A stretch of DNA of 64,000 nt from Thysanoteuthis rhombus. Its lineage: Eukaryota; Mollusca; Cephalopoda; Oegopsida; Thysanoteuthidae. The first letter of the stretch is position 1. Each line of letters starts with the position of its first letter. The stretch is taken from the NCBI GenBank assembly GCA_963457665.1, contig OY735231.1:39077906-39141905 (forward strand), in the 5' to 3' direction. Below the pieces are notes generated by a model. That model saw nothing but the letters and a program-made list of their open reading frames with translations. It did not search any database and was not told the DNA's origin. A program made the position numbers and the translations under genes. Of the stretch, positions 10,716-58,330 are shown piece by piece.

Positions 10716-11744
10716 ATGGAAAATGCTCAAATAAACAGTCGACAAAGAGCAGTGAAGCTCTCGCTCAAGAAGATAGACTTCCGACATCATCGCCACAAAA
10801 CAAGGCCGTGTCTCTGGAGGAACTGCTGCAGAAAGTCGGCCTAAGTCTTAAACGGCTCAGCACCCCAGACGACATTGACCTGCTCAATACAGACTGCTAC
10901 AACGACATCAAAGTGGTGTGGGAAGCCTCGCAGTATAACCCAAATATCCACATCCGCAAATCAGTGGCCTTATGCCTTGTCCAGTGTAAGTTTGTGAAGA
11001 TCTTCAAAAATGTCTGGCTCTCTGTGCACCAAATACACTTTTTCCATAAGGAAAACATAAAACAATGGCGCAAACTGAAGAAGTGCCTGTCGGTGCTGTG
11101 GAACACCTGTGACATCAACTCTGACGTCTGCCAGGATGTGTGCAACATAGGCCTCATATCGATTATGCTGCATGCCCTCACGGCAGTCTCGAACACTAAG
11201 TACTCGGACGACGACAAGAAGCAGTACTACATAAAGTCCATTCTTGGGATCCTGCATAACGTCGTCCGTCATAACAGCGACGGCCGCCTTCTGCTGCGCG
11301 AGTCAGGTGGGGTTCGCGCCTTGCAGCATCTTTTTAAATCCGAACTTGAGATGATCCGCGCCAAATCATTGATCGTTCTCTCGTACATTGTCGACGAGAC
11401 GGAAAGCGAATTGCTCAACTCCAACAGTCAGTTGCTTAGTTTCATTCTGGACATTTTTGACCGAGCGCTCAACTCGCCCAATCATTTCAGCAACAAGTAC
11501 GGGATGTGTGTGACTGAAATTCTACGAGGACTTTTTAACTTATCAGCAAGTGATGTCAACAAGGTGCAATTGGTTCAGAATGGCATCTTAACATTCTATG
11601 TGCGGCTGCTGCAAGAGGAGGTGTTGTCTGAGGCGAACCCCCTGTCTGAAGAAGAGATTCTTTTGGTAATCAATGGACTCTGGGCTTTATCATTTAATGG
11701 AAAAAATAAATCCCTCATTCAAAAAGAACCAGGATGCATCGAAG
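10716..11744 (+). CDS. Exon 1 (first visible): N-terminal linker and most of the ARM-repeat domain
   Basis: This is one long open exon giving 342 complete codons before the donor AAG|GTAGGT at 11745. Residues 1-35 are polar and rich in Ser, Lys and Gln, probably disordered. From about residue 36 (SLEELLQKVG) the sequence is all-helical and leucine-rich. Recognisable ARM-repeat patterns include ILHNVVRHNSDGRLLL followed by SGGVRALQHLF, AKSLIVLSYIV, EILRGLFNLS, and INGLWALSFNGKNKSLI followed by PGCIE. ARM repeats form a superhelical scaffold, and in SARM1 they act as the autoinhibitory, metabolite-sensing part. The exon starts after TTCTTCTTCAG at 10715, which keeps the phase-1 pattern of the later introns. 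A second strong acceptor lies at 10645 and leaves the same frame open. Base composition is clearly richer in G+C than the surroundings. The frame runs on past the donor to 11863, but that tail is transposon sequence. Confidence 0.9.
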
Positions 11745-11780
11745 GTAGGTTCAATCCCTTTTTTGTTATATCTCCTATAG

Positions 11781-12297
11781 CGGTAGTTTCAGAACTGGGG
11801 TCTGTAGACCTGAGGGTTCAACAAATGATTCTTGGGGGTCTGCAATGTTCCTTTCAAACCTGACATTGGGAATCTTATGGCGGATAAACATCCATTGTAC
11901 AACTATCAGAAAATTATTTCTATTGATATTCGGACCATCCTCATCTTGGTTGTTTTTCATACAACGTTTCGGCCGTTACACTCTACGGCCTTCATCAGGT
12001 ATCATCTGACGAAGGCTGTAGAGTGCAACAGTCGAAACGTTGTATGAAAAACAACCAAGATGAGGATGGTCCGAATACCAATAGAAACATCAGAAAATTA
12101 TTGTACAGAAAACTGAAACCATTTAGTAGAATTCGAATAAATGTAATCCATTTAGAATAAATATGATTCTTGAAGGTAAACAGTTGTTATTATTGTAGTT
12201 CATTGATTACAGTATAAAAACTGGTAAAAATAGGGTCCCACCAGAATATTCCCTTTATATATGGGGTCCTTGACTTTTCAAAGTTAGGAAACCACTG
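11781..12297. mobile_element. hAT-type MITE with near-perfect 8-bp target duplication
   Basis: The ends CGGTAGTTTCAGAACTGG and AGTTAGGAAACCACTG are inverted and of hAT type (CAGTGGTTTC). Flanks are TCCTATAG (11773-11780) and ACCTATAG (12298-12305), 7 of 8 identical. A family B hairpin (11928-12076) is nested inside. It starts only 37 bp after the exon-1 donor. Confidence 0.75.
11928..12076. repeat. Family B hairpin: 71-bp arms around a 7-bp loop
   Basis: The left arm 11928-11998 and right arm 12006-12076 are almost exact reverse complements (ATTCGGACCATCCTCATC ... GATGAGGATGGTCCGAAT). Each arm contains the CTGATGA-type box (CTGACGA in the right arm), an intervening stem and GAAAC. Confidence 0.9.
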
Positions 12298-12384
12298 ACC
12301 TATAGTGTTTAGAAATTCAAATTATCCATTAAAACTCCAAGGTAAGCAATTCACTTCAAATCAGGCAATTTTTCCATCATTTTG

Positions 12385-12423
<39 letters not shown>

Positions 12424-12935
12424 TTTAGCATCTATCATTGGACATAGACTTACCCCATGATTCACCGGACCTCTCTATTATAGGCGTCGTTGAGCCAATA
12501 CCTTTTGAACTTGTCTTGTTTTTCACACCATCTTATTTTTTGCCGACCACACTTTTGCCTATGATCTCTGGGGATCCACCTCTTGAGTCATGATATTCAG
12601 TTGCCTGACTTTCTTGCAACATGACCAACCCATTGCCATTCAAATTTTCTAATGGTTTCAATGATATCTCGGACTCCCATTTTTCCTAATATGAAATGCT
12701 ATTTTGTGATCTCTCCATGTGATGTTGAGCATGATTCTCTCATGTGCACATTGCATGGTTGAGAATCAATCTTCTGGTTAGATTCTATGATTCAGCTCCA
12801 TAGGTGACTATCAGGAGGATGCATTGGTTGTATACCCTTCGTTTTTAGGGCTAATGGGATTTTCTTTTTCTTGAATATTGAGCTAGCTTTGCTAACAGCT
12901 TGCCAATAAGACTATGATTCTTACTTTACTTGAGC
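12385..12935 (-). mobile_element. RTE-type LINE 3' end, 5'-truncated
   Basis: Read on the minus strand, it carries the decayed C-terminal reverse transcriptase tail (pattern R-V-Y-N-Q-C-I-L ... YGAE and W-A-G-H-V) and ends in a TGA-repeat tail (12385-12423 as CAT on the + strand). Many stops and frameshifts. Confidence 0.8.
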
Positions 12936-13215
12936 TGCTTTTTTAGAAGACCTGGAATTGAAAATGCAAATGACAGATAGGTTTACAAGCTTTTGCTTAC
13001 AATGACTTTGTAGCCTTAACATAGATTTAAATCTTTTAGCACTAAAAGTGTTAAAGCTTTGACATATCTATGTATTGATATTCAGTGTCATTAAGCCAAA
13101 ATACCTGACATTTTGAGGAAATTTTCTACCTGAAGTATTTTTACTATTATGATTTTATTGCTAGTTTTTCTCCATCTTATTACTGTAGCTTTTTAGATGA
13201 AGTCTTGAACAACAA

Positions 13216-13580
13216 TAGTCATGAGTAAAGGGTTCTATCATTTTTTTTATTTGTGCATGTGTTTGTTTGTTCATTCTCACACTCTTGGCCATACTGTTTT
13301 GTCTACAAACTAAAAACTGGCATCAGTACTCCCCTATACCCCTTCTAGAAACATTTTTTTTTTATTTTTGGAAAAAAAGCTCTTTGGGGTCTTATTTTGA
13401 TGGGTTTATTTATGAGATTTAAATTCTCCAGAATGTAGATATTACTAGATTCTTTTTACACTTAGATGTTTTCCAGTGGAAAACGCCATTCTCAACATTT
13501 TTAATCTTTGATTGAATTCTTTTTACGTGTGACTTTGATGCTGCAATTGTTCAATTATTGACTGTGATGGTGAGTTTTGG
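13216..13580 (+). repeat. Family C repeat
   Basis: Shares long blocks with 24778-25130 and 37380-37775: GGGTTCTATC, TGGCCATACTGTTTTGTCTAC, TTGGCATCAGTACTC-like, GATGTTTTCCAGTGGAAAA, GTTCAATTATTGACTGTGATGG. No coding signal or terminal repeats seen. Confidence 0.8.
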
Positions 13581-13589
13581 TGATTATCA

Positions 13590-13912
13590 TTAGAAACCTT
13601 CCATCAAAACTGTCACCAAAACTGTCCACATATATTCCTTCAGTTTTCAAGTTGGTGTGGCTGGCTCAATATGTATGTATCATGCATGCAGGCCGCACGA
13701 ACGGAGGTAGAAGACTAAAAATTAAAACATTTACTCCTCATTATGTCTACAACAATTGTTTTTTTGTATTTTGAAAATCTTAAATAGGTTTTTAGTTGGG
13801 GGGGTGGTCAGTTTTCAATGTGAGTCACATGATACATGCATAACCATCCAGCTAAAAGAGCTAAAAAACTGAAAAAATGAATGTTGAGAGTTTTAGTTAA
13901 TGTTGTCTAATA
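13590..13912. repeat. Compact fold-back of two family A 5' parts
   Basis: A plus copy (13590-13825) is followed at once by the reverse complement of the same 5' part (13826-13912, ending GAGTTTTAGTTAATGTTG). The order plus-then-minus is the opposite of the pairs at 1411-2670 and 7918-9079. Confidence 0.7.
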
Positions 13913-14349
13913 TTAAGACACAGACATTTTCACTTGTGTAGTAAAGTATATAAATTTTGATTTCATTTTTATCTATGTACAGCAGCTATGACTTCAGTTT
14001 CAAATACCTTTGTATTTATATGTTGTATATATATTACAGGGATATCACATTTCAATAAATTACTCTATTAAAATGATCTTCAAGTCATGGTGATAATCAG
14101 TTAAAATTGCCAATTTTAAATGCATAGTTGTTCATAAAAGTTGATGGCAGTATAGTATTACAGTGATAGAAAAGTGCTGCCACCAATGAGCATGGGGTCC
14201 CTGAAATTGTGGGCCCTAAGGTTACTTTTGTTACATAAACTCTCAAGAAAAAAGAAATAAGCTGAGCTTTTTCTATCAAATTTTTTGCAATTATTCTTTT
14301 ATACTAACGATTATAGATGAAAGATTTGATAATGATATACAACATTGCA
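13913..14349. other. AT-rich sequence, nothing recognised
   Basis: A minus frame 14097-14279 has no domain. Confidence 0.45.
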
Positions 14350-14820
14350 TGCAGTGTTTGTGTGCAGGGCGCATTCCAGTGTGGGATAGCTTTTCCCTTA
14401 TTTTCCTTTCAGAAAACTGAGCCGTTTGGTCAAGCTGTCCGATAGTTGTTTACAATGTGCTGCACAATGTTGTCACCTTCATCTCTGATTGTTTGCCACA
14501 ACTGGTCGATATTCCCCAAATTTCTCCCAGCCAGTTTGGCCTTAACATATGACCATACGATCTCTATGGTGTTAACATATGTTATATGATGGAGAGTGCT
14601 TGGCTCATTTTTTTTTTTTTTTGTCCCGGAGTGAAGTTAATCCAGCTTTGCTTGTAATTTCGATGGAAATACTTTAGCTGCAGCTGGTAAGGACAAAAGC
14701 CATCAATTAATGACTAATGCACTCTTCCAAATCTACTTTGTTTGTCGTCAAATGTTTGCAGAGTTAAGTTCCAAGATTTGGTAATGGCTGCTAATGTCTG
14801 TGACAGCCAGCCAGCCTTAT
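14350..14820 (-). pseudogene. Decayed DDE transposase (Tc1/IS630-type) remnant
   Basis: The clearest part lies at about 14430-14590. On the minus strand it reads NTIEIVWSYVKAKLAG, then NLGNIDQLWQTIRDEGDNI. This matches the NPIE-x-x-W-x-x-(L/V)K ... L-x(3)-I/V-x-x-E region near the third catalytic residue of Tc1/IS630-type transposases. Stops and a T-run break the frame. Confidence 0.65.
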
Positions 14821-14886
14821 GCACAATGTGCAGCCATCTTGGGCAGAGGAATTCAGTGGGAGGAATTATGCTAAGGATATCAACTT

Positions 14887-15141
14887 ATTAGAAACCGTCA
14901 ACCAAAACTGTCAACATTGGTTACTTCAGTTTTTAAGCTGCTCCGGCTGTGTATGTATGTATTGCACATACAGTCCGCACCAACAGAGCTTGGAGGCCGA
15001 AATTTTTAAAATTTACTCCTTATGTAAAAAGAAATAATGTTTTTTCTTTTACCCTCCCCCTTAGATAGGTTTTTAATGAGAAGTTTGATTTGCAAAGTAA
15101 TTTTGTGCTAAATTGGTTCCTTAGTTTAGACTTTTTTTTAC

Positions 15142-15175
<34 letters not shown>

Positions 15176-15650
15176 TATCATCATTCTTTCAATATCCGTC
15201 ATTGGACATCCTTCCCCAGGATTCGCCACACTTCTCCATCATGGGCATCACGGAGCCAGTACTTTCTGAATTTGTCTAGCTCGTCTCTCCATCAAATATT
15301 CTGCCGGCCTCGGTTCCGCATATGATCTCGGGGGATCCATGTCATGATCCGCGATGTCCATCGGTTGTCCGCCATTCTTGCAACATGGCCAGCCCACTGC
15401 CATATGAGATTTTTAATGGATTCTATGATGTCCCTGACTCTTGTCTTTTCCGGATTTACTGTGCTGTCTTGTGGTCTCTCCATGTAAGGCCCAGCATAAT
15501 TCTTTCTTGTGCACTGCCCATCAAAAAGCAAGATTCATCGATCGTCCCCTTTTTCAATTCTTTTATTGATCACCCCTGACATAGCATGCTGCCACTGCTA
15601 AAAGTCATTGGTCGGAGGACGGTTTTATTGAGTGACTAACCAGACCAGCT
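14887..15650 (+). repeat. Family A repeat interrupted by an RTE 3' end
   Basis: Starts TTAGAAACCGTCAACCAAAA and ends GAGTGACTAACCAGACC. It is split by the RTE fragment at 15147-15516 and then resumes with CACTGCCCATCAAAAAG. Confidence 0.85.
15147..15516 (-). mobile_element. RTE-type LINE 3' end nested in family A
   Basis: The minus-strand reading includes DIIESIKNLIWQWAGHVARM and ends in a TGA-repeat tail (15147-15183 as CAT on the + strand). Confidence 0.85.
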
Positions 15651-15887
15651 GTTGCTGTAAAGATTAATGCCTGCTAGTCCCAGAGTGGATACCAAAGTGA
15701 GATATAGTTGTCTCTGTCAAGTACAGACTTCTTATTTCATAGTCACATAGCAGTTTCTGGGGTGGAGAGACTTGCCTGTGACCTAATAGGGTGACCCAAT
15801 AGGGTATTCTGTTACATATTAATGAGGGTTGTTGTGATGGTTGCAATAGTTGCTTTACCTTGGTAATATTGATTATAATGATTATAT

Positions 15888-16225
15888 TATCGAATCACCA
15901 TAGCCCCACAAATGGCCTGACAAACCAGACAAGTGGGCTACAGATTCTTCTCTCTCTCCGAGTGTATGTGTCTATCTATGTGTCTATATGTATGTGTGTC
16001 TCCAATTATTCTGGGTCACATTTTTCAGGCCACAACCATGAAAATTGAATTTGTATAAAGTACCTTCTAAAAACTTTTTTTTCCAAAAATGGTCTTTTTT
16101 GGAGTCTCTATGGTCATTTTAGGACCAACAATGCCCTAATCTTGTGCTTGTATTTTTTAGGTAATTGTGATTGATTCTTTTAGATAATTAGTCCTTGTAC
16201 ACGCACAAGCTATGGTGATTCACTC
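15888..16225 (+). repeat. Family D repeat
   Basis: Shares CACAAATGGCCTGAC, GTGGGCTACAGATTCTTC, TTTGGAGTCTCTATGGTCATTTT and GTCCTTGTACACGCACA with 18715-19050 and 30121-30440, in the same order. Confidence 0.8.
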
Positions 16226-16265
16226 ATGTGAAGTATGGATATTGATTATATTATGATTCATATAG

Positions 16266-16270
16266 ATTGA

Positions 16271-16332
<62 letters not shown>

Positions 16333-16565
16333 GTATATGTGTGTGTGTATCAAGAAATAGATATATGTGTTCGACGGAATGATTATAAATAGCATCACAT
16401 AATACAGAAACTCGTTTGAAATGATTTCCCCTCATTAAACTCTTAATGTATCCCTCACCCTAGACAATGTGAATAGAATAAACATGTAATGAAAATGGGA
16501 CTGCTGCAGGAATCAAACCTGTCATTGATTGGGTAGTTGCTTTAATGACTGGAGATCATATCATA
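16266..16565 (-). mobile_element. tRNA-derived SINE with AT tail
   Basis: The reverse complement has the B-box-like CAGGTTTGATTCCTGCAG (16505-16522), the body block GTCTAGGGTGAG, and a long TA tail (16266-16325). Same family as 21808-22060. Confidence 0.7.
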
Positions 16566-17190
16566 TAAGTTTCTATATAATATAACGCTATTCATAATCG
16601 TATATTTGTACGTATATACATACATATATATACTATGGCTGAGCAATATTGCAAGAATTAATGTACCAGTATAGTCAGGCTAAATACTGATATATGATAT
16701 ATTCCCAGTATTTTTCTATGTTCAATTGCAAGAACTTTTATCAAAACAAACTGAGATCAAAATTATGATTGATAAATAGATGGAAAATAGACATATCTGT
16801 AAGAATGCGGCTCTTCCAACTACAAATAGAACACAAAATTCTCTGATTATAAGAAACTGAAAATAAAAATCCAAATAGAGGAAAAAATAGTTTTCTAGTG
16901 AGATAGATAGTTTAAGGAACTATGAGGAAGAGAGTGTTTGGCACACATGTGTGTGGAATTGTGCAGAAAATTTGGAATGGGGACAGGCAAGCCCACAAAA
17001 AAACTGACTTTGAATTAGCTCCAAAATTACTAAATTGGCATCATTGTGGCTCTGTGATATAACGGGAGGTCATTTCAAATAGGGTTTTGAATAATATAAC
17101 GCATTCATGAATATTCTATTGGATTATACATTTATAATTATAATGATATATATGTGTATATATACGTGAGAGAGATAGAGTGAGATTGAC
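16566..17190. other. AT-rich sequence, nothing recognised
   Basis: Short TA runs and one imperfect GA run. No coding signal. Confidence 0.45.

Positions 17191-17194
<4 letters not shown>

Positions 17195-17220
<26 letters not shown>
17195..17220. repeat. (TA)n microsatellite
   Basis: Pure TA run directly before a family G copy. Confidence 0.95.
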
Positions 17221-17221
<1 letters not shown>

Positions 17222-17223
<2 letters not shown>

Positions 17224-17320
17224 TGTTGTGGATGTGAAGCGTCTAACAGAATATTGATGAAAAAGACAATTGGAAGGTGAAGAGAAAAACTCAAGAAATA
17301 AGTGTTACATCTCAAAATTT
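17222..17320 (+). repeat. Family G repeat (partial)
   Basis: GTTGTGGATGTGAAGCG, CAACAGAATATTGATGAAA-like, GACAATTGGAAGGTGAAGAG and GTGTTACATC are shared with 55955-56140 and, inverted, with 29455-29650. Confidence 0.75.
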
Positions 17321-17327
<7 letters not shown>

Positions 17328-17398
<71 letters not shown>

Positions 17399-17423
17399 GT
17401 ATATGTATACATATATATATATA
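17328..17423. repeat. (TA)n microsatellite
   Basis: A long TA run with GTATATG interruptions between a family G copy and a SINE fragment. Confidence 0.95.
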
Positions 17424-17530
17424 TAGGATTATAAATGGCCTTATATTGTATTGAAACTCTTATTTGAAATGATCTTCCGTTGTTACATGGTGAATGTATC
17501 ATTTGGTCTAGACAACATAAATAGACCGTA
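17424..17530 (-). mobile_element. SINE 3' fragment
   Basis: Reverse complement shares TTTCAAATAAG, GTTGTCTA and GCCATTTATAATCC with the tail half of 21808-22060. Confidence 0.6.
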
Positions 17531-17954
17531 TTCTATCTATGTTGTCTCGGCCTAATGATATATCCAGTTGGATCATATATCCATTTCTTTATATATACAT
17601 ATATATTCAAAAGAAAAATAAAGTGGTATTGACACAAATGTATATCTATACATATAAAAATACATATATAACAGAAAGTTTTGCTAAGAAAGACCTGAGA
17701 ACATTTTTTTCCTTTCCATCTAATCCACTCATCTTGTACTCCTTAATTTGTTTTTGCTGTCAGGATTTGAGTGGCTTCATCCATGCAGTCCTGATTCATT
17801 TATCTGCTTTGCTTTTAACCAAACTTTGACAAGAAAAGCACTTGGTCGGTCGCATAGAAGACCCGATTTCTCCTTCTGCCTTCTTCATGTATCTGACTTT
17901 GACATTCCCCATTATTATTATTATTCATTCTTATAATCTTGCTTAATTTCAATC
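17531..17954. other. AT-rich sequence, nothing recognised
   Basis: Overlapping frames 17539-17829 and 17748-17936 have no domain. Low-complexity T-rich sequence explains them. Confidence 0.45.
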
Positions 17955-18545: not shown

Positions 18546-18714
18546 TCTTCTACCTTCTACAGGTATTCAGTCATGAATCTAAGATCACAAATACTAAAGT
18601 TGAAATAATTTCAATCGTGTGATTGTTCAGAATCATTGATGGAGAAATAGCCTTAAAAGTGATATTATGTAAAGTGAAAAATTGCATTATATACAATAAA
18701 TAAATAAAATATAT

Positions 18715-20190: not shown

Positions 20191-20872
20191 GAAGTAAATT
20201 ACCCACTGCTTTTTTTCTTTGATCATGAATTTATGTTTCAAACCATACTGGTAATTAATTTTACCACCACTACTACTTAAAAGCATGTATGGGTGGTGGT
20301 GATTCATAATTTCCCTTGGAATGCTAGTTATTATTATTATTAATTTTATACTGGTTTGTCTATTATCTTTTTTTTTACACCCTATAGACATTATATGTAA
20401 AGAGTATAATGAGGTAGCAATCCTTTATTTAAATACATCTCGTTAAAAATAACAGATGAACTCTATTCAATTTTTTTGTTAATTTTTTTAAGTTGACAAA
20501 AAAAATTGTGTAAAGTTTGTCTGTTATTATTACTAAATTGAATCAAAACATCTTCATTCCTGTATATTGTGTGTCTTAAACCATGAACTCGTTTCGGGAT
20601 GATTATTACATCAAACGTAGATTTTTGGCAGATTGTCACTAATTGCACAATGCATCTTTGTAATTCAAGAATAGAAAACAAAAGTTGTAAAATTCAGGAA
20701 GAAAGGAAGAAATCTTTCAGATAATGAGTTATTCATTCATGGCTTCATTCATATTTGATGAAAAAAACACAATTATCTTTAATTATCCTGAGTGTTAGTG
20801 TAGGAGGAAACCCAAGTGCTTCATGTACATAGCAGAGTTGTGGTAAGTTTATATATATTTTTTATTATTAGT
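20191..20872. other. AT-rich sequence, nothing recognised
   Basis: Open minus frames 20143-20391 and 20463-20681 lack domains. Confidence 0.45.
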
Positions 20873-20873
20873 C

Positions 20874-20940
20874 CTACACATCTGTTGAGTACTCAGTGGG
20901 ATTGAGATCTGTGGATTTTAGTGGCCAGGGCAACACACAC
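20874..20940 (-). pseudogene. Tc1 transposase fragment
   Basis: On the minus strand it reads [19 protein letters not shown], the W-P-x-x-S-x-D-L-N-P-I-E signature around the third catalytic residue of Tc1/mariner transposases. Only about 20 codons remain, cut by a microsatellite. Confidence 0.75.
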
Positions 20941-20953
20941 AAACACACACACA

Positions 20954-20992
<39 letters not shown>

Positions 20993-21163
20993 GTATATAT
21001 ATATATATATATATACATATGTATATATATATATATATATACATATGTATATATATATATACATATGTATATATATATGTATACATATGTATATATATAT
21101 GTGTATATATATATGTATATATATATATGTATATATATATATATACATATGTATATATATATG

Positions 21164-21199
<36 letters not shown>

Positions 21200-21203
21200 T
21201 ATG

Positions 21204-21252
<49 letters not shown>
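20934..21252. repeat. Long compound (CA)(TA)/ATATGTATAC microsatellite
   Basis: About 310 bp of TATA with regularly spaced CATATG and GTATAC. It is near-palindromic and produces dipeptide ORFs in all frames, none real. Confidence 0.95.
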
Positions 21253-21257
<5 letters not shown>

Positions 21258-21454
21258 CATATTATATTTAACAGAATGTGATAATTATGAAGACATTTAA
21301 TTAGGAACTAATTCTCAGCAGCCATTTTACTCGTTAACCAATCGAGCAGCTTCAATCAAAGAAATGAGTGCGTGTAGTGTTTGGATATGTATCATCTGAC
21401 AGGATGGTGTTAACAATGACAATGTGGAGAGCAAAATTTGTGTTAATCAAATTG

Positions 21455-24770: not shown

Positions 24771-24777
24771 ACCATAG

Positions 24778-26791: not shown

Positions 26792-27696
26792 TTAGAAATT
26801 GTTAACCAAAACTGTCAACGTAAGGTTTTTTCAGTTTTTATGTTGGTCTGGCTGGCTGGCTGGCTATGTATGTACGGGGTGTTTATTCTCTGTCGCACAG
26901 CAGCAAAATATGACACAAGGTCGAGCTTAACGTGGGAAGAATAGGAATGTATGTATGGACTAGAGTTCTGAACATTCATTGTGAATAGTCCTGAAAAGAA
27001 GAGTATACAACCGATGCATCCTCATGATAGTCACCTATGGAGCTGAAACATGGAACCTATCCAAGACACTAAACCTCAAACTGAGAAGCATGCAACGAGC
27101 ACATGAAAGAATCATGCCCAACCTCACATGGAGAGTTCACAAGACAGCACAGTATATCAGGGAAAAAAACAGGAGTCTGAGACATCATAGAATCAATTAG
27201 AAACCTCAAATGGCAATGGGCTGGTCATGTTGCAAAAATGGCTGACAACCACTGCACATCATGACTCACAACATGGATCCCCGGAGATCACATGCGTAAT
27301 TGAGGCTGGCAGAATATAGAATGGAGAAACGATCTAGATAAGTTCGAAAAGTACAGGCTCCAGCAGGCCCATGATTAACAAATCTTGGGGAAGGTCTATG
27401 TTCAAAGACAAATGATAAAAGACTGATGATGATGATGATGATGTCTAAAAAAAAAGGATTTTGTTTTTTGAAAATTCACCCTCAAATTAATTTTTTAGTG
27501 GGAGTTTAATTTGCAATTAAAGTTTTTGCTAAATTGGTCCTAGTTTGCGCCCGGCTTTTTTAGTGATCCAACAGAAGGCAAGAGAAGTGACTTACTCATT
27601 GATAACACATTTTTCAATTGATCATCCCCAACATGGCATACTGCCGAAAGAAATTGGTCATGTGACAGTTTCTATTTAGTGAATAACCAGACCTGT
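26792..27696 (+). repeat. Family A repeat interrupted by an RTE 3' end
   Basis: Starts TTAGAAATTGTTAACCAAAA, is broken near 26873, resumes at about 27443 (GTCTAAAAAAAAAGGA) and ends AATAACCAGACCTGTT. Confidence 0.85.
26990..27442 (+). mobile_element. RTE-type LINE 3' end
   Basis: Translated fragments include the RVYNRCILMIVTYGAET pattern and NLKWQWAGHVAKMADN, followed by a TGATGATGATGATG tail. Stops and frameshifts are present. Confidence 0.85.
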
Positions 27697-35845: not shown

Positions 35846-36011
35846 ATATTTCGTGCCTTTAAAGTGTTTTTGCTGATAACATTGACATATCAATAACATG
35901 AAGGCCATTTTATTTCTCATTTTTTTTTCATCTACATGGTAGATAAACATTGTCTCAGTCTTTAGCTATGAATTCCTAGAGAATCTTTTTTCTTTCTTTG
36001 GCAAATAGCAA

Positions 36012-36787
36012 TTGTTTCTGAATGAAAGAATTAGTGCAGATTACACTGTCCTTTTCACTGAGAACCTACATGACCTCCAACGAATGCTAGATGAACTAAA
36101 TGAAGAAAGCAAAAAAGTAGGTCTACACATGAATTTCAGTAAAACAAAAGTCATGTGCAACGATCACATCAAGAAAGAGAACATACTGTCAAAATCAAAG
36201 ATGCAAAACTTGGGGAAGTTGACCACTATGTCTACCTAGGACAATAAATCTCCATGAGATCCTCAAAAGAAGAAAGCAAGCAAAGAATCACACTAAGATT
36301 GCAAGCCTTTGGCAGAGCAAGGTCAACATCCAAAAACAAGACAATCCCAATAATCCTAAAAAGAAGAGTATACAACCAATGCATTCTCCCGATAGTCACT
36401 TATGGAGCTGAAACATAGAACCTAACCAGAGACAGACCTGCAAACTGAGAAGCATGCAACACGTGCATAAGAGAATCATGCTCAACCTTACATGGAGAGA
36501 TCACAAGACAGTACAGTCTATCAGGGAGAAAACAGGAGTCCGAGTCATCATAGAATCTATTAAAAAACTTAAATGGTAAAGGGCAGGCCATGTTGTAAGA
36601 ATGACAGACAGCTGATGGACATCACGACTCACAACATGGATCCCCAGAGATCAAATGCAAAACTGAAGCTAACAAAATACAAGATGGAGTGATGAACAAG
36701 CCAAATTCAGAAAATGTGATTGAGAATTATTGCGGATCCTGGGGAAGGTCTATGTCCAACAACCAATGATAAAAGACTGATGATGAT
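36012..36787 (+). mobile_element. RTE-type LINE 3' part
   Basis: Starts at the remains of the RT active-site block (ADYTVLFTENLHDLQRMLDE, the FADD aspartates partly lost) and continues with NEESKKVGLHMNFSKTKVM. It then passes through RVYNQCIL and YGAET patterns to a short TGATGATG tail. Confidence 0.85.
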
Positions 36788-43577: not shown

Positions 43578-43682
43578 CTTTGCAACGAGTGATCAGTCAT
43601 GGAAGTGAGGCCACAAGACATGCAGGGCGTGGCATCTTCTGGGAGCTTCAGTCAAGTAGTGTATACATTCCTTATACTCCAG
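43578..43682 (+). CDS. Exon 2: small exon completing the last ARM repeat
   Basis: This is a 105-bp exon between the acceptor TTTTTCCAG (ending 43577) and the donor CCAG|GTGCGA. Phase is 1 on both sides. Joined to exon 1 it turns PGCIE into PGCIEALQRVISHGSEATRH (residues 338-357). The following segment, residues 358-366 (AGRGIFWEL), completes the H2-H3 helices expected of an ARM repeat left unfinished by exon 1. A short proline-containing linker (residues 371-377) then leads directly to the TIR domain in exon 3. A long pyrimidine-rich tract precedes the acceptor. The exon sits 31.8 kb from exon 1 and 5.5 kb from exon 3 and is easy to miss by ORF length. Its fit to the unfinished repeat and to both phases makes it convincing. 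Confidence 0.85.
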
Positions 43683-46252: not shown

Positions 46253-47094
46253 ATACCTATGAATTTATTTATTGCAAATACAATACAAAAGTTGCAGTAA
46301 TCATCTTCAGTTAGAATAGAAGTAGGAGTGGAGTTTGGTCGTGCAGCCTAGCTTGTTTTTGTCATCATATAGATCCTAATAATAAACCTTAAGGGAGCCC
46401 TAAACTGCTTCTTAATAATGAAGAATTATTGGCATCGATTACCAGTGACCTACAAACAATGGTCCAAGCAGTTCTGGAGATTTTAGGACTTCAATCATAT
46501 CATGTCATTTCATGGTAATAGGAAAAGCTACCAAGTTGGAAAAATGGGTCCTTCATGAACTGAATGAAATACTCTGAGGCTGCATCTGACCCCAAAGCTG
46601 CTTTTATCTAAGCTTAGAGAATTGGGATACGAAGTCTTGCAACATCCTCCATATTCACTTGGCATTTCTCTAATGAATTATCACCTTTTCAATTTTATAT
46701 CCATGATAAAATGTTCAATAATAGGGAAGTCATAATTCATGCTTTTATATGAATTTGTGACCACTAAACCAAAAGAATTTTATTGAGATGTCATATTATA
46801 ATTACAGGATCATTTGGGAAGGATAATTGCTTAAAATGGGTCATATTTTAATCAGATATTTACCAATTTTTGTTTTTTATATCACCCTTCATCTCGCTAT
46901 TCAAATAACAACATTTCATACATAACAATCTTGATGGATGGAGCCAGGGTTGCCAATTTAGCTCATTTAGAGCTAGATCTAACTCCTGTTTAGCACACTT
47001 AGCACTCAAAAGACTACATCTAGCTCTTAGCTCTGAATTTAGCTTCTTTTCAAATTAGCTGACTTTTTAATTTTCTTATTCAAGAAATGATTAG
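46253..47094. other. AT-rich sequence; TTTAGCTC-type phrases at the end
   Basis: 46950-47060 contains repeated TTAGCTC/GAGCTAGA phrases. The same phrases reappear at 48128-48175, on the other side of the RTE insertion. An older element may be split by the RTE. Confidence 0.4.
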
Positions 47095-50149: not shown

Positions 50150-50186
<37 letters not shown>

Positions 50187-50891: not shown

Positions 50892-51161
50892 CAGAGATTC
50901 TCAACCTTCTTTTTTCCATATCAACTCCTTTTGGTTATTTTTTTAAAAAAATCTTTCGCATCTCTTGGCTCAATTTTTTCTTAGTTAAATATGACTATTC
51001 TGCATAATCCAAGTTTAGATACTCACATCAAATAACTTGACTGTACATCTTCTGAAAGGAATATTGCGTAAAGCCTATCGCCTACTTTTTTTAAAAGGAA
51101 TCCACTTGTATGTATCAATTAGCGTCCCTTGGGGCTATATTGCCCCCTTTGAGAATAACTG
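50892..51161. mobile_element. Probable degraded hAT MITE
   Basis: CAGAGATTCTCAACC at the left and GAGAATAACTG at the right are inverted and of hAT type. No 8-bp duplication can be seen, so the call is tentative. Confidence 0.45.
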
Positions 51162-51205
51162 TAAGTAAATAGACACTTTTTTTCTCCTCTCAGAGCACTA
51201 TTATC

Positions 51206-51236
51206 ACCATCATCACCATCATCATCATCATCTCTC
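51206..51236. repeat. (ATC)n microsatellite
   Basis: Short ATC/ACC run. The Asp-rich minus frame here is not a gene. Confidence 0.85.
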
Positions 51237-51583
51237 TCATCTGGTTTGCCCACATAAACATTCATTATTATGTCTATAATTTCACTATCAGCGTGTTGGA
51301 GAATGACTGGAGCATCTCTATCGATATTTATACACTCTTTTATCACCCTTTCATTAAGATGTAATTATTTGCTAATAAAGGGAAACAACCCACTGATAAC
51401 CGTAACAGAAATTTGCACCTGATTATCAGGCAACTAGCCGACCGCACCTGCGCCTCTGTTGTTCCTTATACAATCTGTATGAATCCACCCTTAATGCCAA
51501 TATTGCTTTAAGCATTGATACACTCACAATCCAGTAACAACCTGAAACCTGACTTGGCTAATCACATGACAAATATATTGCAT

Positions 51584-51865
51584 ATTAGAAACTGTCAACT
51601 AAAACTGTCAACATCAACACTGGTCTCTTCAGTTTTTAAGTTGGTTTGGCTGACTGGCTAGCTATGAATGCGTCACATGTACAGGCAACACCAATGGAGC
51701 TACAGAGCTAAAAACTTTGATATTTATTTGTTATTTCTTCAGAAAACCCTTTTTGTGTTTTTTGAAAATTATCCATAAAGTTTAATTGATCACCCCAAAT
51801 GTGGCATGCTGCCAAAAGATGTTGGTCAAGTAACAGTTTCTACTGAGTGACTAACCAGACCTGTT
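51584..51865 (+). repeat. Family A repeat with internal deletion
   Basis: TTAGAAACTGTCAACTAAAA ... GAGTGACTAACCAGACCTG. The middle third is missing (joined near 51780). Confidence 0.85.
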
Positions 51866-51939
51866 CTAATAAATTCTCTATCTATTCTTCTCTATTTCTT
51901 CCTCACAAGACATGAAAACCACAAAAATCAGGTTCATCA

Positions 51940-52855
51940 GGAAATAAGGATGATGGCCATAGTTTATACCAGCATCCTTGGGGACATTGTCCCTGGATGT
52001 TGCCGCACTCAAAGTGCATCTTCATTATTCAATGGTTTCGGAATTTTTTTTACCCCTGTGCCGTGGTTGTAAATGTCTAGCCTTCTCTGTGGAAATACAT
52101 CCCTGTCCTTGCACCTGAACACTGACATTGCCTCATCAGAAAGCAACTTGGCTAATTCATCTAAATACGCCTCTGCAGGTTTGTGGTCTGCAGAAACATT
52201 TTGACCACAAAGATTCAGTTTGCAAATACTGTGCCTCTGTTTAAATCTATCAAATCATCCAGATGAATATCCATAAAAAGTTGTCCTTGTGGAAAAGTTT
52301 AGCTTTGGCCATTATCAAGGCTGAATTAAGGTTTTTGCAGTTCCTTGGCACTAATGAGATCTGGTTCTCCCTAATATTTCAAAATGTATATAATTTCATG
52401 ATGTTTTGATACATAGATTTTGTAATGATTTTAAATATACTTTTGGTAGGAACCCAAATTTTTTGTTTGGGCCAAGGCATTGTGCCTGGTGTGCTTAATT
52501 GATAATACAGCCTAGGCCATTACAATGAAATGACTTCGTTAGGTGGAATCTTCTCTCTATGATGCTGCCTAATCCATTCAAGCAACACTCTGTCCATGTC
52601 TACACTCTCTGATTGGTGTAAGCTTTTTCACTTGTCTCTTAATCTAGACACATCACTATCACTGTAGAATCTAAAAATCTCTTCCTTCTCTTTCTTGATA
52701 TCATAGATTACAGATGTACCAACACTCACTCGAATGCCACACTTGAGCACTTTTATTGAGTCTCATAAGTAACTGTATCTCCTTTGATATACTGAGTGCA
52801 AAATGTTTCCATTTTGGTTTTCCACCAGCAAGTTTTCTGCTGGTCTCTTAGACAT
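51940..52855 (-). pseudogene. Pogo/Tigger-type (CENP-B/jerky-like) transposase remnant
   Basis: The minus strand begins with ATG at 52855 (MSKRPAENLL). It continues VGTSVIYDIKKEKEEIFRFY (first HTH), VDMDRVLLEWIRQHHREKIP (CENP-B HTH) and RHSICKLNLCGQ with AEAYLDELAKLLSDE (linker to the DDE domain). Stops and frameshifts occur in every block, and the DDE core is nearly lost. It fills much of intron 3, and its 5' end is 121 bp from exon 4. Confidence 0.85.
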
Positions 52856-52975
52856 GGTAATGAATGAAAACTTGATTTATACATAATTTGCTTTATACTA
52901 AATCCTTCCCTCTGATTACCTGCTTGTTATCAAAACTGTTATTTTGTATCTAATCAGTTTATATTCGGTTGATAG

Positions 52976-53077
52976 GTGGATCGACCCTGGAAGCAATGGC
53001 CCTTGCAGTGGAGAGATCAGCACTGATTTTGATTGGGGTCTCCCAGAACTACAAAGACAGTCCAAGTTGTCGGACAG
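52976..53077 (+). CDS. Exon 4: central TIR segment (BB loop, alphaB, betaC) up to the SxxCRT motif
   Basis: This is a 102-bp exon after the acceptor TTGATAG, with donor GTAAGG at 53078 and phase 1 on both sides. It encodes residues 419-452. SGSTLEAMALAVERSA is the BB-loop end and alphaB helix. LILIGVSQNYKDSPSCRT is the betaC strand and the loop that leads to the catalytic glutamate in enzymatic TIR domains (S-x-x-Y-x-x-S-x-x-C in the family). A pogo/Tigger transposase remnant on the opposite strand ends about 120 bp upstream of the acceptor. The acceptor's pyrimidine tract is weak (TATATTCGGTTGATAG), so exon definition may rely on other elements. Confidence 0.9.
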
Positions 53078-54240
53078 GTAAGGATGATTTTCACTGAAAT
53101 AGCCTGGTTTATGTGTAAACAAGTGGCATATGTAATGTCCATGTATTTCATTTCGTTCATTCAAATGTAAATAAAGGGAATCAACTTATCAAATTGTAGC
53201 TGTTATGGCAGTTATCAGATGAAGCCTCTTTCTGGATAACTGGAGCTGGCTACTCTTGATTAGCAGCAGCCATTATGATCACACGTTTCTTCATTCTTTT
53301 CTTATTTCTGTTGCTACTAACACAGTTAAAAACAATTGTGTTTTAAGCAGCAGATATCTAACCAAACAACCAAGCAAAGATATAACTGCGCATTATCTCA
53401 TAAAGAGAATATTATAAAAATTTTTGTAGAAAATTGTTTAAAAAATCTGTATTCTGTTGACACTGAACAAAAATTTTCTTTGAATATACAAAAAAAAAAC
53501 ATTTGGATTTTAAGAAATCTTTCACTAGAAGAGGCAAGTCAGATATTTCTTGATATTATACCAATCCTTTTTATATATGGATCTTTTCCAACTGGTGTCC
53601 TCATCTGCTTGTTGTACTTGGTAACTTTCTGGAAATTTCAAACTGAACCCTTTATTCAGTTCTCATAGATGGATTGTTTTCTTCCTGTTGTCCATGTCAA
53701 ATAAATCATTGTATAATAATGATAATTGCTCTTCTCGGAAATTTTGACAGAGTGTATCAATGTTTGTTTTAGAGTTTTAAGTGGAGACATCGTCAGCATC
53801 ACCTTCATTCTGTTCTCTGTCTATCATCATGGCATACAAATGGTTGAAATGACTTAAAATAAGAGACAATATTGAAAAGGTTTAATTCATGGTTTTATTC
53901 TTATTTAGTCATGTTCCTTAGTGATGATGTAATACAATATACTGTTTATAAGTAACTAGTTACCCATGTCATAAAAAATGGCGGCAAATATGAAATATAC
54001 GGATGCATATCGCACATTATTTATGTGAATAATAGAGATTTGAATCACAGTGAGCTGAAGGAATAGCGTTGTGATGATAGAAAATGAATTCTATCATTTT
54101 TTTTGTTTTATTACTTTGTATATTTTTATTATTTTTTATTTCAGTATTTTCATTTTGTCATCAGATCAACAAATTCTATTTTACTACGTCAGTTACGCCC
54201 TTTTGAGTGACAGAAGACAAGCACACATTTCTAAAAATTG
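53078..54240. other. Intron 4, first part: AT-rich, nothing recognised
   Basis: The open frame 53336-53668 (110 codons) has no domain. Its composition is like the flanks and the ARM-TIR-SAM frame does not need it. Confidence 0.5.
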
Positions 54241-54780
54241 TATGAGTGGATGATGCAATATGACACACTGTTTATAAGTAATGATACAATATAATGCATT
54301 ATTCATCAATAATGATACAATATGATACACTGCTCATAAGTAATGATACAATGTAAACACACAATAAGTAATGATACAATATAAACACTTGATAAATAAT
54401 GATACATTATAATACACTGTTTATAAGTAATGGTGCAATATAAACACTTAAGTAATGATACAATGTAAATACTTACTAAGTAATGATACAATGTAAACAC
54501 TTACTAAGTAATGATACAATATAAACACACAATAAGTAATGATACAATATAAACACTTGATAAGTAATGATACATTATAATACACTGTTTATAAGTAATG
54601 GTATAATGTAAACACTTAATAAGTAATGATACAATGTAAACACTTACTAAGTAATGATACAGTGTAAACACACAATAAGTAATGATACAATATAAACACA
54701 CAATAAGTAATAATACAATATAAACACTTGTTAAGTAATGATACATTATAATACACTGTTTATAAGTAATGCTATAGTGT
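54241..54780. repeat. Minisatellite of about 24-28 bp next to exon 5
   Basis: About 20 units of the plan AAGTAATGATACAATATAAA followed by CACTTA or a variant. Some units read ACACTGTTTATAAGTAATG. The array ends about 80 bp before exon 5 and explains the Tyr/Ile-rich minus frames. Confidence 0.92.
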
Positions 54781-54858
54781 GATATACACCAATTAATATG
54801 ATATCACATGATATTTGACATGCTTTATGGCTTTGATTATTATTTTTCTTCATTCCAG

Positions 54859-55074
54859 AATCCGAATATGTTTTCCGGCTGCGAAAAGATATGATCCCAA
54901 TAATGGTTCAAAAAAATTATATTCCTGATGGTTGGCTTGGTATGCTGGTGGGCACTAAACTCTATTTTGACTTTAGTCATCCGACAGACTTTGATGCTCA
55001 AATACCACGTCTCATTAAGGAAATTGGACCGAGGGGCTTGCTGGTCCCCAATGAGGATCTCAATGTACTCAACG
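54859..55074 (+). CDS. Exon 5: catalytic-glutamate region and C-terminal half of the TIR domain
   Basis: The acceptor is TTCTTCATTCCAG and the donor GTTTGT is at 55075, phase 1 on both sides. It encodes residues 453-524. The first residue, Glu453, is made from a codon split across the intron (G|AA). The junction reads CRT-ESEY, so Glu453 and Glu455 are both candidates for the glutamate that performs NAD cleavage in SARM1 and plant TIRs. RLRKDMIPIMVQ is the betaD strand. DGWLGMLVGTKLYFDFS is the betaE region with the W-L-G-M-L signature of the metazoan TIR_2-like group. QIPRLIKEIG is the final helix. A polar linker follows (about 513-524). A 24-28-bp minisatellite lies just upstream of the acceptor. 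Confidence 0.92.
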
Positions 55075-55142
55075 GTTTGTAATCCATTATTCCCTTTATA
55101 ATGCTCTATCTTCTGGGTGTCTCTTTCACAATTATTATCAGT

Positions 55143-55344
55143 GTGGCAATTGTTACCTTTCCTGTTTTTAAATGGCTGCTGTTTCAGCTGTACAATAACA
55201 GATGCTGATGATAAACTAACCCTAACACTTACCCTAAAAATACTAATCCTAATCATTACCCTAAAAGTACTAACTCTTACCCTAAGAATACTAACTGTAA
55301 CCTTAAACCTAGCCGTCTGGGAAATGGAAAAGGTAACAATTGCC
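55143..55344. mobile_element. MITE with 19-bp inverted ends and telomere-like core
   Basis: TGGCAATTGTTACCTTTCC on the left is matched inversely by GGAAAAGGTAACAATTGCCA on the right (one extra base). The centre (55212-55305) is an imperfect array of ACCCTAA and TACTAAC units. Confidence 0.75.
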
Positions 55345-55954
55345 ATTAAAGCTCCATTTATTGATTAATGGATTAATTTATTTTTATATAATTGGTCTGA
55401 AGGTGCTTAACATAGAATGATTATTCACAAGTGATATTAGCTGGTAATATGCGTTTGATTCTTATGTGTCCGACTATTATAACCTTGTACAAAACTTATC
55501 TAAGCCCAGTAAATATCTGTGTAACAAATCAGAAAAATCTGGGCTATATGAAGTCTGTCAGACTACTTTGAAAAGTGGAAGGGAGGCTGGAATACGTGTA
55601 TGTGTGGTCCCAAGAGGACTACATTAAAGTGGACTAAGATGCCACTGCTCTTGGTAGGCTATTTTTTGTTAACACAGGTGTCCACTTTCATAGTGCGCAT
55701 GTTATGGTCCAAGAAAGCTAACTATGTAATGACGGAATTACATCACAGCTTGATTGTAACTACATTACAATCAAACTGCAAAATAATTCAGCCATTTTGA
55801 AACTGAGTCTAGCTATTTTGGAGCTAGAATAATAGTTAGGGGTCGAAACCATCTACCCACATTAAGACACAAACTGTGCAATAACAAACCATTTCATGAA
55901 GAGGGAGGCCTGTAGTATATGGCTGGATACTCTCTGAACAGCCGTTGTACATAT
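55345..55954. other. AT-rich intron sequence, nothing recognised
   Basis: The frame 55600-55800 has no domain. Confidence 0.45.
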
Positions 55955-56140
55955 ATATTGTGTAGATTTGAGATGATCCAACAGAATATTAGTAATTTGA
56001 CAATTGGAAGGCAGAGAGGAGTAAGAACAGGTGTTACATCACAAGAATCTTTATTGTCATCTGAGCATGTTTTGATACATTTTGATGGTTGCCACCACCT
56101 TTTTCAAAAAACTTTGCTGCAGTTGCAGAGAAAGCTGTAT
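55955..56140 (+). repeat. Family G repeat beside exon 6
   Basis: GAGATGATCCAACAGAATATT, GACAATTGGAAGGCAGAGAG, GTGTTACATC, GAGCATGTTTTGATACATT and TTTGCTGCAGTTGCAGAGA match 28655-28812 in order. Confidence 0.8.
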
Positions 56141-56191
56141 GCAGTTTACATGTTACCTCTGAGAGTTATTATTGTATCATTATTATTTTAG

Positions 56192-56312
56192 CCCAACCAC
56201 ACGTGTGTTCATGTAAAACCCAGGGTACTCATCACCAGTCGTACGGATTATGGAATTCTGCTCAAGTTGCCAAATGGCTCGATAATTCTGGCCTGAAACA
56301 TGTGAAAGAGAA
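56192..56312 (+). CDS. Exon 6: linker and first half of the SAM domain
   Basis: The exon begins after ATTATTTTAG and ends before GTACGT at 56313. Phase is 1 at the start and 2 at the end, the only switch in the gene. It encodes residues 525-564. A Cys/His-containing linker (HVCSCKTQGTHH) is followed by LWNSAQVAKWLDNSGLKHV. The W-x(3)-V-x-x-W-L-x(3)-G-L pattern is the first helix pair of a SAM domain. A copy of repeat family G (55955-56140) ends about 50 bp upstream of the acceptor. Confidence 0.9.
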
Positions 56313-57324
56313 GTACGTTAACAATTTTGTCTCGGATTTTTTCCCTCATTTTTAAAGTTCTTTCTTTTCTTTCTTTTACTTCTCACTCCTTTTATCTTTT
56401 TTTTTAATGTTTTATACATTTAAATCTTGTTTTTTTTCTACCTTTCTCTCTTTTTACTCTTTCTCTTTATCTACGATGTTGCTTTGTAATATAATGCTAT
56501 ATTCTTGTTCATAATCAAGTGTGTAGACCAGCTACACCTTACATATGTTGCACACATAACCCCAATATATATTTAGACATGATAAAAAAGAAATTTGGAA
56601 AATTGCCTTCTCCAATAACAAAATTCACCTTCAACCCAACCTTCTTCCACCAAGTCTTATTCACAACCAATTACTCATATAAACCAAATGCTTCATTATG
56701 TAGTTAAAATGCAATTCAAATAAAAAATGCTTAGTTAATTAATTTGCATGAATTTCATTTCAAATGCTCATGATAGATTTAAAAGGAAACATTTGTGAAT
56801 TATTTCTACTCATTCAAATATTTTTGCATTACTTATCGCAGGTGTCAGACTGTTTTAGAGTCTCTGTACTCAGGATAGGTGATCAATATCATGGCCGATC
56901 AGTTTTCTATTCTTATTAAGTGATAAACTGAACACCCCAAGCATTAATAAATCTATTTATATCAACTTATATAAACATTAGTGTCTGTTGCTTTGCAAAG
57001 CTAAAATGGTCATGATGTATTTGCGTTTATATTTAAGTGTATAGACCAACTATACCTATAATATTTTTCACACAAAACCCTAAATTATATCTGAATAGAA
57101 CGATCAATTTTTTTCTTGAATTGCATGCTTAAACCAGTTTTTCTACTGTTTTAAAAATCTCTGTACATGAAAGGGGGATCAATAAAGTGGTGAATCAGCT
57201 TTCGATTGTTACCATGTGATTAACTGAACCCCCTCTTTAAAACGTCTTGATGTAAGATGTTCCAAATAATGAAATCCACACACGTCCAACCAGTTTCTAC
57301 CTGGTCTTATTCACAGCACAATTT
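56313..57324. repeat. Intron 6, first part: diverged tandem duplication
   Basis: GTGTAGACCAGCTACACCTTA (56520) and GTATAGACCAACTATACCTA (57039) begin similar segments. CTGTTTTAGAGTCTCTGTAC (56850) corresponds to CTGTTTTAAAAATCTCTGTAC (57147), and AACTGAACACCCC (56928) to AACTGAACCCCC (57223). Confidence 0.55.
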
Positions 57325-57365
57325 ACATATATACATATATATATACATATATATATATATATATG
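57325..57365. repeat. (TA)n microsatellite
   Basis: TA run with CATATA interruptions, followed by a short family G-like phrase (GTGTGGATGTGAGGTGATCC). Confidence 0.9.
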
Positions 57366-58170
57366 TATGTTTGCTGTGTGGATGTGAGGTGATCCGACTT
57401 TTTTTTCGTATGCACCCATTTCATTATACAGTGGATTCCAGTTCACAGGACCACATCGAGAATTATGATTTGGACCTAATAACCTGCTGGTCCAATTAAC
57501 CAAACATCTTCATTTTCATGCACAAAACACTAAAGATTTTTTAAATCCAAGGAGAACAACTTGCATAAAAACCAGAACAAATCAACTCCTATTAATTTTC
57601 TCACAAACTAAAAATATTTGAAAGATTGTTTTGAGAACTAAACAAATATATATTTTAGTAATTCCATCACAATTTTATCGAATTAGTTCTTACAAATTGG
57701 TCTTATTGGGTAGCTAGTCCTAAAGACTGATAGAGCTATTAAATGGAGTCCACTACATTTCGGAATATCATTTTCCACTTCCAGGATTGTGTGACTCAAA
57801 AAGTGCATTCTAGAATTTTACCTTGAAGAAAGATCGATATTCCCACAATTTAGATATGCCAATCTGTGGTCCCAACCCTGCCCCGAAATCCTAAAATTCC
57901 TGCTGGTTAATGGGGCCCTGGTTGAGAACCTCTGATATAAATGGTGAGAAGGCCTGATCCAGTTGAGGGCAAATGTCTTGATGGCACCTCTAGTAGATAC
58001 TCAAAAAACTCCACTCAGCCAGTAACTCTGTCATAAACATAACTGTAACAACCCCCAATATATTTTTATTGCTTAAGTTAAATGGAAGCTTACCTTTTTG
58101 AATGTTAGTGCAAGCAAAAATACCCCGTGTTTTCTATCAAGAAAATCAATCACTTGTATTTATTTTCCAG
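57366..58170. other. Intron 6, second part: AT-rich with a single hAT-like end
   Basis: CTGGTTGAGAACCTCTG (57912-57928) is a typical right end of an hAT element, but the left end was not found. Confidence 0.45.
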
Positions 58171-58330
58171 TTTTGCTGCTTTCGATGGGGAACTCCTTGA
58201 AGAACTGTGTCGGGTCCAAGTAACAGCACCAGAATTTTTCTACAAAATCCTTCAGACAGAATTTAAATTAAACTTAGCAGACATTCTCAAGTTATCCAAA
58301 GGCATACACCACTTGTCATCAAAACGATAA
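58171..58330 (+). CDS. Exon 7: second half of the SAM domain, C-terminus and stop
   Basis: The acceptor TTATTTTCCAG joins AA|T to give Asn565, and translation ends at TAA 58328-58330. Residues 565-617 read NFAAFDGELLEELCRVQ, then a helix containing FYKILQTEF, then NLADILKLSKGIHHL. The pattern F-x(3)-DGE-x-L-x-x-L is typical of SAM helices 2-4, and the final helix holds the usual end-helix interaction surface. Only a few residues follow the domain. SAM domains drive polymerisation, and in SARM1 they form the octameric ring. A similar scaffold role is inferred here. Confidence 0.92.

What the first reader, a model, noticed from the sequence alone, without database searches (positions are those of the whole stretch)
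10716..58330. ARM-TIR-SAM protein: SARM1 parts in a different order
The seven-exon model joins ARM repeats, a TIR domain and one SAM domain. SARM1, the animal TIR NADase, is ARM-SAM-SAM-TIR. With TIR in the middle, autoinhibition by ARM and assembly by SAM would act on it from opposite sides. If the TIR is enzymatic, this could be a separate NAD-consuming immune or cell-death sensor outside the SARM1 lineage.
Basis: partly seen in the sequence, partly recalled or inferred. Interest (0 to 1): 0.85.

Follow-up and report, generated by a model that had tools for sequence, protein, structure and literature searches.

The report
Octopus ARM-TIR-SAM protein beside SARM1
This is a real octopus gene for an uncharacterised protein that carries the same three kinds of parts as the cell-death enzyme SARM1 in a different order; relatives in many animals keep that order, and the same genome has an ordinary SARM1 as well.

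Summary
The seven-exon, 617-residue ARM-TIR-SAM model holds up. Six GT-AG introns keep frame, and the whole model aligns to a 631-aa Argonauta protein (484 of 616 residues identical). The order ARM, TIR, SAM is found in 174 of the 193 relatives that the searches listed; none shows a family-type SAM before the TIR. They come from molluscs, annelids, nemerteans, brachiopods, hemichordates, amphioxus, echinoderms, a tunicate, lampreys, eel-like fish, corals and some non-animal transcripts. The start codon is missing; it should lie in an upstream exon that I could not find.

It is not a rearranged SARM1. The same genome has a SARM1 on another contig in the order ARM, SAM, SAM, TIR, whose TIR groups with vertebrate SARM1 (100/98), apart from this family (100/99). 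A second family gene lies on a third contig.

Whether the TIR is an enzyme is open. The candidate catalytic glutamate (E453) is kept in 192 of 192 TIRs, but the tryptophan four residues before it in SARM1 is absent from all 192.

ARM-TIR and TIR-SAM proteins are in print; the three-part name gave no paper. Most likely: an autoinhibited, SAM-assembled TIR enzyme of a family parallel to SARM1; a scaffold is the main rival.

The parts
10716..11744 (+). Exon 1 of the model (not the first exon of the gene): ARM/HEAT-type helical repeats, residues 1-342
   Evidence: Open frame, AG before and GT after; octopod-free family ARM profile 303.7 bits on this ORF; 284 of 342 identical to Argonauta
43578..43682 (+). 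Exon 2: last ARM repeat, residues 343-377, after a 31.8 kb intron
   Evidence: Frame and splice sites; 25 of 35 identical to Argonauta, no gap; at chance level on its own, 8.4 bits
49148..49270 (+). Exon 3: first third of the TIR (SYQW, VWMD), residues 378-418
   Evidence: 56.5 bits with the octopod-free TIR profile; 37 of 41 identical to Argonauta
52976..53077 (+). Exon 4: middle third of the TIR, up to CRT; ends inside the codon of the candidate catalytic Glu453
   Evidence: 51.8 bits; 29 of 34 identical to Argonauta
54859..55074 (+). Exon 5: last third of the TIR, from Glu453 (split codon) through PDGWLG, residues 453-524
   Evidence: 86.0 bits; 52 of 71 identical to Argonauta with one gap; Glu453 in 192 of 192 family TIRs
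56192..56312 (+). Exon 6: linker and first part of the SAM domain
   Evidence: 19.5 bits; 19 of 41 identical to Argonauta; frame and splice sites
58171..58330 (+). Exon 7: rest of the SAM domain and stop TAA
   Evidence: 56.9 bits; 38 of 52 identical to Argonauta

Best explanation
The gene encodes an octopod member of a widespread ARM-TIR-SAM family that runs parallel to SARM1. Shown: gene structure, domain order, its conservation, separation from SARM1, a predicted TIR fold and an invariant glutamate. Inferred: the ARM repeats hold the TIR inactive and sense a cue; release lets the SAM domains assemble the protein; the clustered TIRs then cleave or convert NAD+ or a related nucleotide, giving a death or danger signal. 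The TIR sits between regulator and assembler, so it would be controlled from both sides.
Confidence: 0.58

Rival explanations
1. The TIR is a non-enzymatic scaffold: ARM binds partners, SAM clusters the protein, and the TIR recruits other TIR proteins such as MyD88 or Toll receptors.
Against: The Glu is invariant in 192 of 192 at a median 58% identity, whereas the same survey says it is rare (under 10%) in MyD88 and TIRAP. Sequence-wise the best solved matches of the TIR profile are bacterial Cat1 (8.5e-7) and a SEFIR protein (8.2e-4), then plant RPS4 (0.0024), SARM1 (0.0079) and MyD88 (0.026).
Confidence: 0.3
2. It is SARM1 with exons rearranged by assembly error or by a recent local shuffle.
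For: Same three kinds of parts; the SAM resembles SARM1 SAM1.
Against: A SARM1 in normal order lies on contig C47 of the same genome; TIR tree splits them at 100/99 and 100/98; the order recurs in 174 of 193 listed relatives.
Confidence: 0.01
3. It is a decayed or unexpressed copy.
For: No start codon found; large introns; no transcript data were available here.
Against: No stop or frameshift in 617 codons; 484 of 616 residues identical to Argonauta; a 97% match over the ARM part (56% of the query) in an unnamed ENA protein, P0003.
Confidence: 0.03

Closest known systems
SARM1 (ARM-SAM-SAM-TIR NAD+ hydrolase)
   Same: ARM, SAM and TIR parts; Glu at the TIR active-site position; SAM like SARM1 SAM1 by profile
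   Different: Order ARM-TIR-SAM, one SAM, TIR in another clade, no Trp before the Glu. The family ARM profile hits 0 of 120 SARM1 proteins (all vertebrate), the TIR profile 4 of 120, the SAM profile 110 of 120
Invertebrate 'ARM-TIR' proteins (oyster PMC4346834, Aplysia PMC9334734) and ecTIR-DC proteins of Gerdol et al. 2017 (not held)
   Same: Intracellular TIR with armadillo-type repeats in molluscs. This family is probably among them (inference): Pfam SAM_2 reaches E 0.01 in only 17 of 52 members, so the SAM is easily missed
   Different: The passages I saw name no C-terminal SAM; ecTIR-DC family 6 is given as ARM repeats, Death and two TIRs (PMC6836662, passages)
Amphioxus TIR-SAM hybrid gene (PMC2575513)
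   Same: TIR with SAM, cDNA recovered (passages); amphioxus has ARM-TIR-SAM family members (P0034, P0249)
   Different: No ARM part is named in the passages; whether that gene model is a family member was not checked
Uncharacterised eukaryotic TIR clades 10-13 (PMC13142454)
   Same: Diverged TIRs found among others in molluscs and cnidarians, none characterised (section 5)
   Different: Assignment of this family to one of the clades not tested; supplements were not open to me

Membership tests
SARM1 | Order ARM-SAM-SAM-TIR with TIR last | tested here: not met
   ARM 30-377, TIR 382-510, SAM 542-614
SARM1 | Tandem SAM domains | tested here: not met
   One SAM match only
SARM1 | TIR within the SARM1 clade | tested here: not met
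   Separate at 100/99 and 100/98; SARM1 rows are four vertebrates and this genome's own; branches between groups are long
SARM1 | Catalytic Glu | tested here: met
   E453, 192 of 192 family TIRs; equivalence by alignment to the Glu of Cat1 and RPS4, not by structure
SARM1 | Trp four residues before the Glu | tested here: not met
   0 of 192
SARM1 | Allosteric NMN/NAD+ pocket in ARM | not tested
   Profile comparison did not align the two ARM regions; no coordinates were compared
SARM1 | NADase activity | not testable with these tools
   Needs an assay
TIR domain proteins (Pfam TIR_2) | Score above the curated cut-off | tested here: met
   69.9 bits against 28
SAM domain proteins | Score above a Pfam SAM cut-off | tested here: inconclusive
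   17.8 bits against 20.5 for SAM_2; family SAM profile 81.8 bits without octopods; five helices predicted there in P0259; similarity to SARM1 SAM1
ecTIR-DC families (Gerdol et al. 2017) | Membership in a numbered family | not tested
   Paper not held

The most novel reading that the evidence does not exclude
A second family of autoinhibited TIR enzymes, older than animals, built from SARM1's kinds of parts in another order, with its own active site (invariant Glu, no SARM1 Trp, near-invariant SYQW, VWMD and PDGWLG motifs) and perhaps its own nucleotide chemistry. It is kept beside SARM1 in this octopus genome and reaches lampreys and eels.
Probability: 0.45. Interest if true: 0.78.

Novelty: new variant of a known kind. 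Interest (0 to 1): 0.56.

Why it matters
SARM1 is treated as the ARM- and SAM-controlled TIR enzyme of animals. A widespread family with the same kinds of parts in another order would let one ask which features of autoinhibition and assembly depend on order, and whether animals hold a second NAD-linked death switch. The unusual active site makes the enzyme-or-scaffold question directly testable in an octopus, bivalve, coral, amphioxus or eel protein.

Tried and rejected
SARM1 by misassembly: rejected. Start exon: looked for by similarity to Argonauta's N-terminus and by a scan of ATG-to-donor frames in the window; five short frames with a common donor turned up, none resembling Argonauta. Bacterial origin: the one scan of genome contigs (two peptide patterns, so low reach) gave 7 loci. 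L001 and L002 (42 and 48% identity) come from MAGs labelled bacterial but encode long repeat-like proteins with a TIR, L002 also a SAM-like tail by eye; I take them for eukaryotic contamination, an inference. L003-L007 are bacterial TIRs at 26-32%. Full-length fold search with the Argonauta model: the VIA rows are generic ARM repeats; Foldseek's first row is human SARM1 at TM 0.26 and rmsd 28, so no shared arrangement; hence the second model from P0259, whose Foldseek list again begins with SARM1 at rmsd 23. Whole-protein profile comparison with SARM1 aligned only the SAM. Bacterial rows change place between trees, and the program warned of long branches meeting. Literature: all 10 searches used; 'ARM-TIR-SAM' 0 papers. 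That the three-part family is not named in print is claimed only for in that library.
Full report
The observation. The window lies at G000:C36:39077906-39141905 of a 2.73 Gb genome in 514 contigs. The closest named protein is from the argonaut Argonauta hians (79% identity), so the source is very probably an octopod; the assembly is unnamed. The seven-exon model was rebuilt from the DNA: six GT-AG introns, no stop in 617 codons, TAA at 58328-58330. Its 5' end is missing: the first exon opens in mid-frame and no in-frame Met stands before the ARM part. Argonauta has 13 residues more at the N-terminus; the leader exon was not found in the window or in the 20 kb before it.

Is it more than chance? 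Family profiles built without the two octopod rows find the exons in six-frame translation at 303.7 and 8.4 bits (ARM exons 1 and 2), 56.5, 51.8 and 86.0 bits (TIR exons), and 19.5 and 56.9 bits (SAM exons), all in order on one strand. The best hits in 20 windows shuffled in blocks of three bases were 11.3, 9.4 and 10.3 bits for the three profiles. Exon 2 by itself is therefore at chance level and rests on its splice sites, its phase and Argonauta (25 of 35 identical).

The family. The search with the model gave 483 proteins at E 1e-3 or better, of which the best 120 are listed; a search with the TIR region of the Capitella member gave 186, best 120 listed. Together these are 193 distinct proteins; many are unnamed ENA rows that resemble the Porites coral proteins, so they are not independent cases. 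With profiles from 23 seed rows (the octopus included), 172 are ARM-TIR-SAM, one ARM-TIR-SAM-SAM, one ARM-TIR-TIR-SAM, 14 ARM-TIR, three TIR-TIR, one ARM-TIR-ARM-TIR, and one ARM only (the fragment P0003). No row has a family-type SAM before the TIR; a SAM of another type could be missed. Of the 14 ARM-TIR rows five were scanned with Pfam: P0306, P0307, P0311 and P0314 carry a SAM after the TIR, P0304 shows none at E 0.01. Named hosts include Haliotis, Lottia, several bivalves, Owenia, Capitella, Lineus, Lingula, Ptychodera, Saccoglossus, Branchiostoma, Acanthaster, Lytechinus, Styela, Petromyzon, Anguilla, Megalops and Porites, and an EukProt transcript labelled Phypoly, which I recall as the slime mould Physarum polycephalum. 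I saw no arthropod, nematode or tetrapod among the names listed there; many rows have no name, and this is not a test of absence.

Against SARM1. A SARM1 protein (P0203, Pleurodeles) finds six stretches on contig C47, one strand, in the order of query residues 85-356, 358-428, 391-461, 459-537, 571-640, 634-677: by position ARM, SAM, SAM, TIR. Three of the six stretches run past exon ends into stops. The two TIR pieces are 62.5 and 48.8% identical to the amphibian protein. In a tree of 30 TIRs this genome's SARM1 joins four vertebrate SARM1s (100/98), and the window gene joins 19 family rows (100/99); an earlier tree of 47, with vertebrate SARM1 only, agrees (98/96 and 100/98). The branches between the groups are long (over 5 changes a column), so the trees show separation, not which group is older. 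The family profiles hit 0 of 120 SARM1 proteins with ARM and 4 of 120 with TIR, but 110 of 120 with SAM (all 120 from vertebrates). Profile comparison likewise aligns only the SAM, with SARM1 SAM1.

A second family gene. On contig C22 near 23.86 Mb, minus strand, pieces match the family profiles in order: ARM 61-106 (weak, 10.5 bits), 137-167, 172-204, 213-255, 254-338; TIR 2-25 (weak, 9.5 bits), 23-74, 72-127; SAM 4-19 (weak, 9.7 bits), 17-42 (14.2 bits), 41-72 (36.1 bits). Its ARM is cut into several exons, whereas the window gene has one large ARM exon and a small one. In the tree it joins a bivalve row (90/81) and not the window gene, so the two copies look old, on moderate support.

The TIR. 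In 192 family TIRs the Glu after C-R-x is invariant (E453), as are W412, D414, M426, K445, Y456, P466, G477, W478 and L479. By HMMER alignment it falls at the Glu of RPS4 and Cat1, which both have Trp four residues earlier. SARM1 has W638 four residues before E642 (numbering); a survey names the pair at these spacings as ligand-binding (legend, match by spacing mine). The family has N, S, A, P or G there in all 192. The same survey says that the Glu stands in over 70% of all TIRs and does not track activity, but is rare in MyD88 and TIRAP. So an enzyme is likelier than not, and if so its pocket is not SARM1's. The Argonauta model has mean pLDDT 83.8, pTM 0.62, with a low-confidence TIR loop at 431-433; the starfish P0259 model 82.8, pTM 0.47. 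VIA-align puts the P0259 TIR closest to SPARTA TIRs and Hydra TRR-2 (tied), then MyD88 and SARM1; Foldseek ranks full-length SARM1 first, then TRR-2, and only two matches reach E 0.001. A shared fold shows no function.

Mechanism. By analogy with SARM1 (established knowledge: ARM inhibits, SAM assembles, TIR cleaves NAD+), ARM should restrain the TIR and SAM should cluster it. This is inference. The order places the TIR between the two, with a low-confidence linker on either side (pLDDT under 50 at 385-393 and 531-552 of the Argonauta model), so both neighbours could move against it.

What is known. ARM-TIR is a listed class in oyster (a legend) and Aplysia (passages); a TIR-SAM cDNA was recovered in amphioxus (passages); ecTIR-DC proteins are described as widespread in invertebrates and apparently absent from vertebrates (PMC6321704, passages); a 2026 atlas calls TIR clades 10-13, found among others in molluscs and cnidarians, uncharacterised (section 5). 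No held paper has the term ARM-TIR-SAM. Gerdol et al. 2017, the likely place of a prior description, is not held, so I do not claim first description. If this family is one of the ecTIR-DC families, its lamprey and fish members sit oddly with 'absent in vertebrates'.

Verdict.

Noticed in passing
G000:C22:23851000-23870900 (L016, L017), minus strand: A second ARM-TIR-SAM gene in the same genome, with its ARM split into several exons, outside the window gene's subfamily in the TIR tree.
   Followed up: partly
G000:C22:40573370-40573489 (L013): A third, more distant TIR stretch: profile 3-40 at 36.2 bits and 53-114 at 19.7 bits.
   Followed up: no
G000:C47:31538993-31617481: SARM1 of the same genome, spread over about 78 kb in order ARM, SAM, SAM, TIR.
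   Followed up: partly
window 36009-36236: Remnant of a reverse transcriptase (RVT_1, 2.9e-5, below Pfam's cut-off). Similar-looking fragments near 26985, 30524, 41110 and 47109 were seen by eye; the last three gave no Pfam hit and the one at 26985 was not scanned.
   Followed up: partly
window 46393-46732: Looks by eye like a broken mariner-type transposase; the part scanned (46568-46732) gave no Pfam hit.
   Followed up: no
P0275, P0301, P0282, P0288, P0297: Lamprey, Aldrovandia, tarpon and eel members of the family, though ecTIR-DC proteins are said to appear absent from vertebrates (PMC6321704, passages).
   Followed up: no
L001, L002: Contigs in MAGs labelled Planctomycetota and Verrucomicrobiaceae encode repeat-TIR proteins of eukaryotic look; probably contamination (inference).
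   Followed up: partly
P0306, P0307, P0311, P0314: Unnamed environmental ARM-TIR-SAM proteins with a basic, possibly organelle-targeting N-terminus; perhaps from green picoalgae, a guess.
   Followed up: no
window 20872-21297 and elsewhere: Long dinucleotide-type microsatellites that read as IYIYIY in several frames.
   Followed up: no
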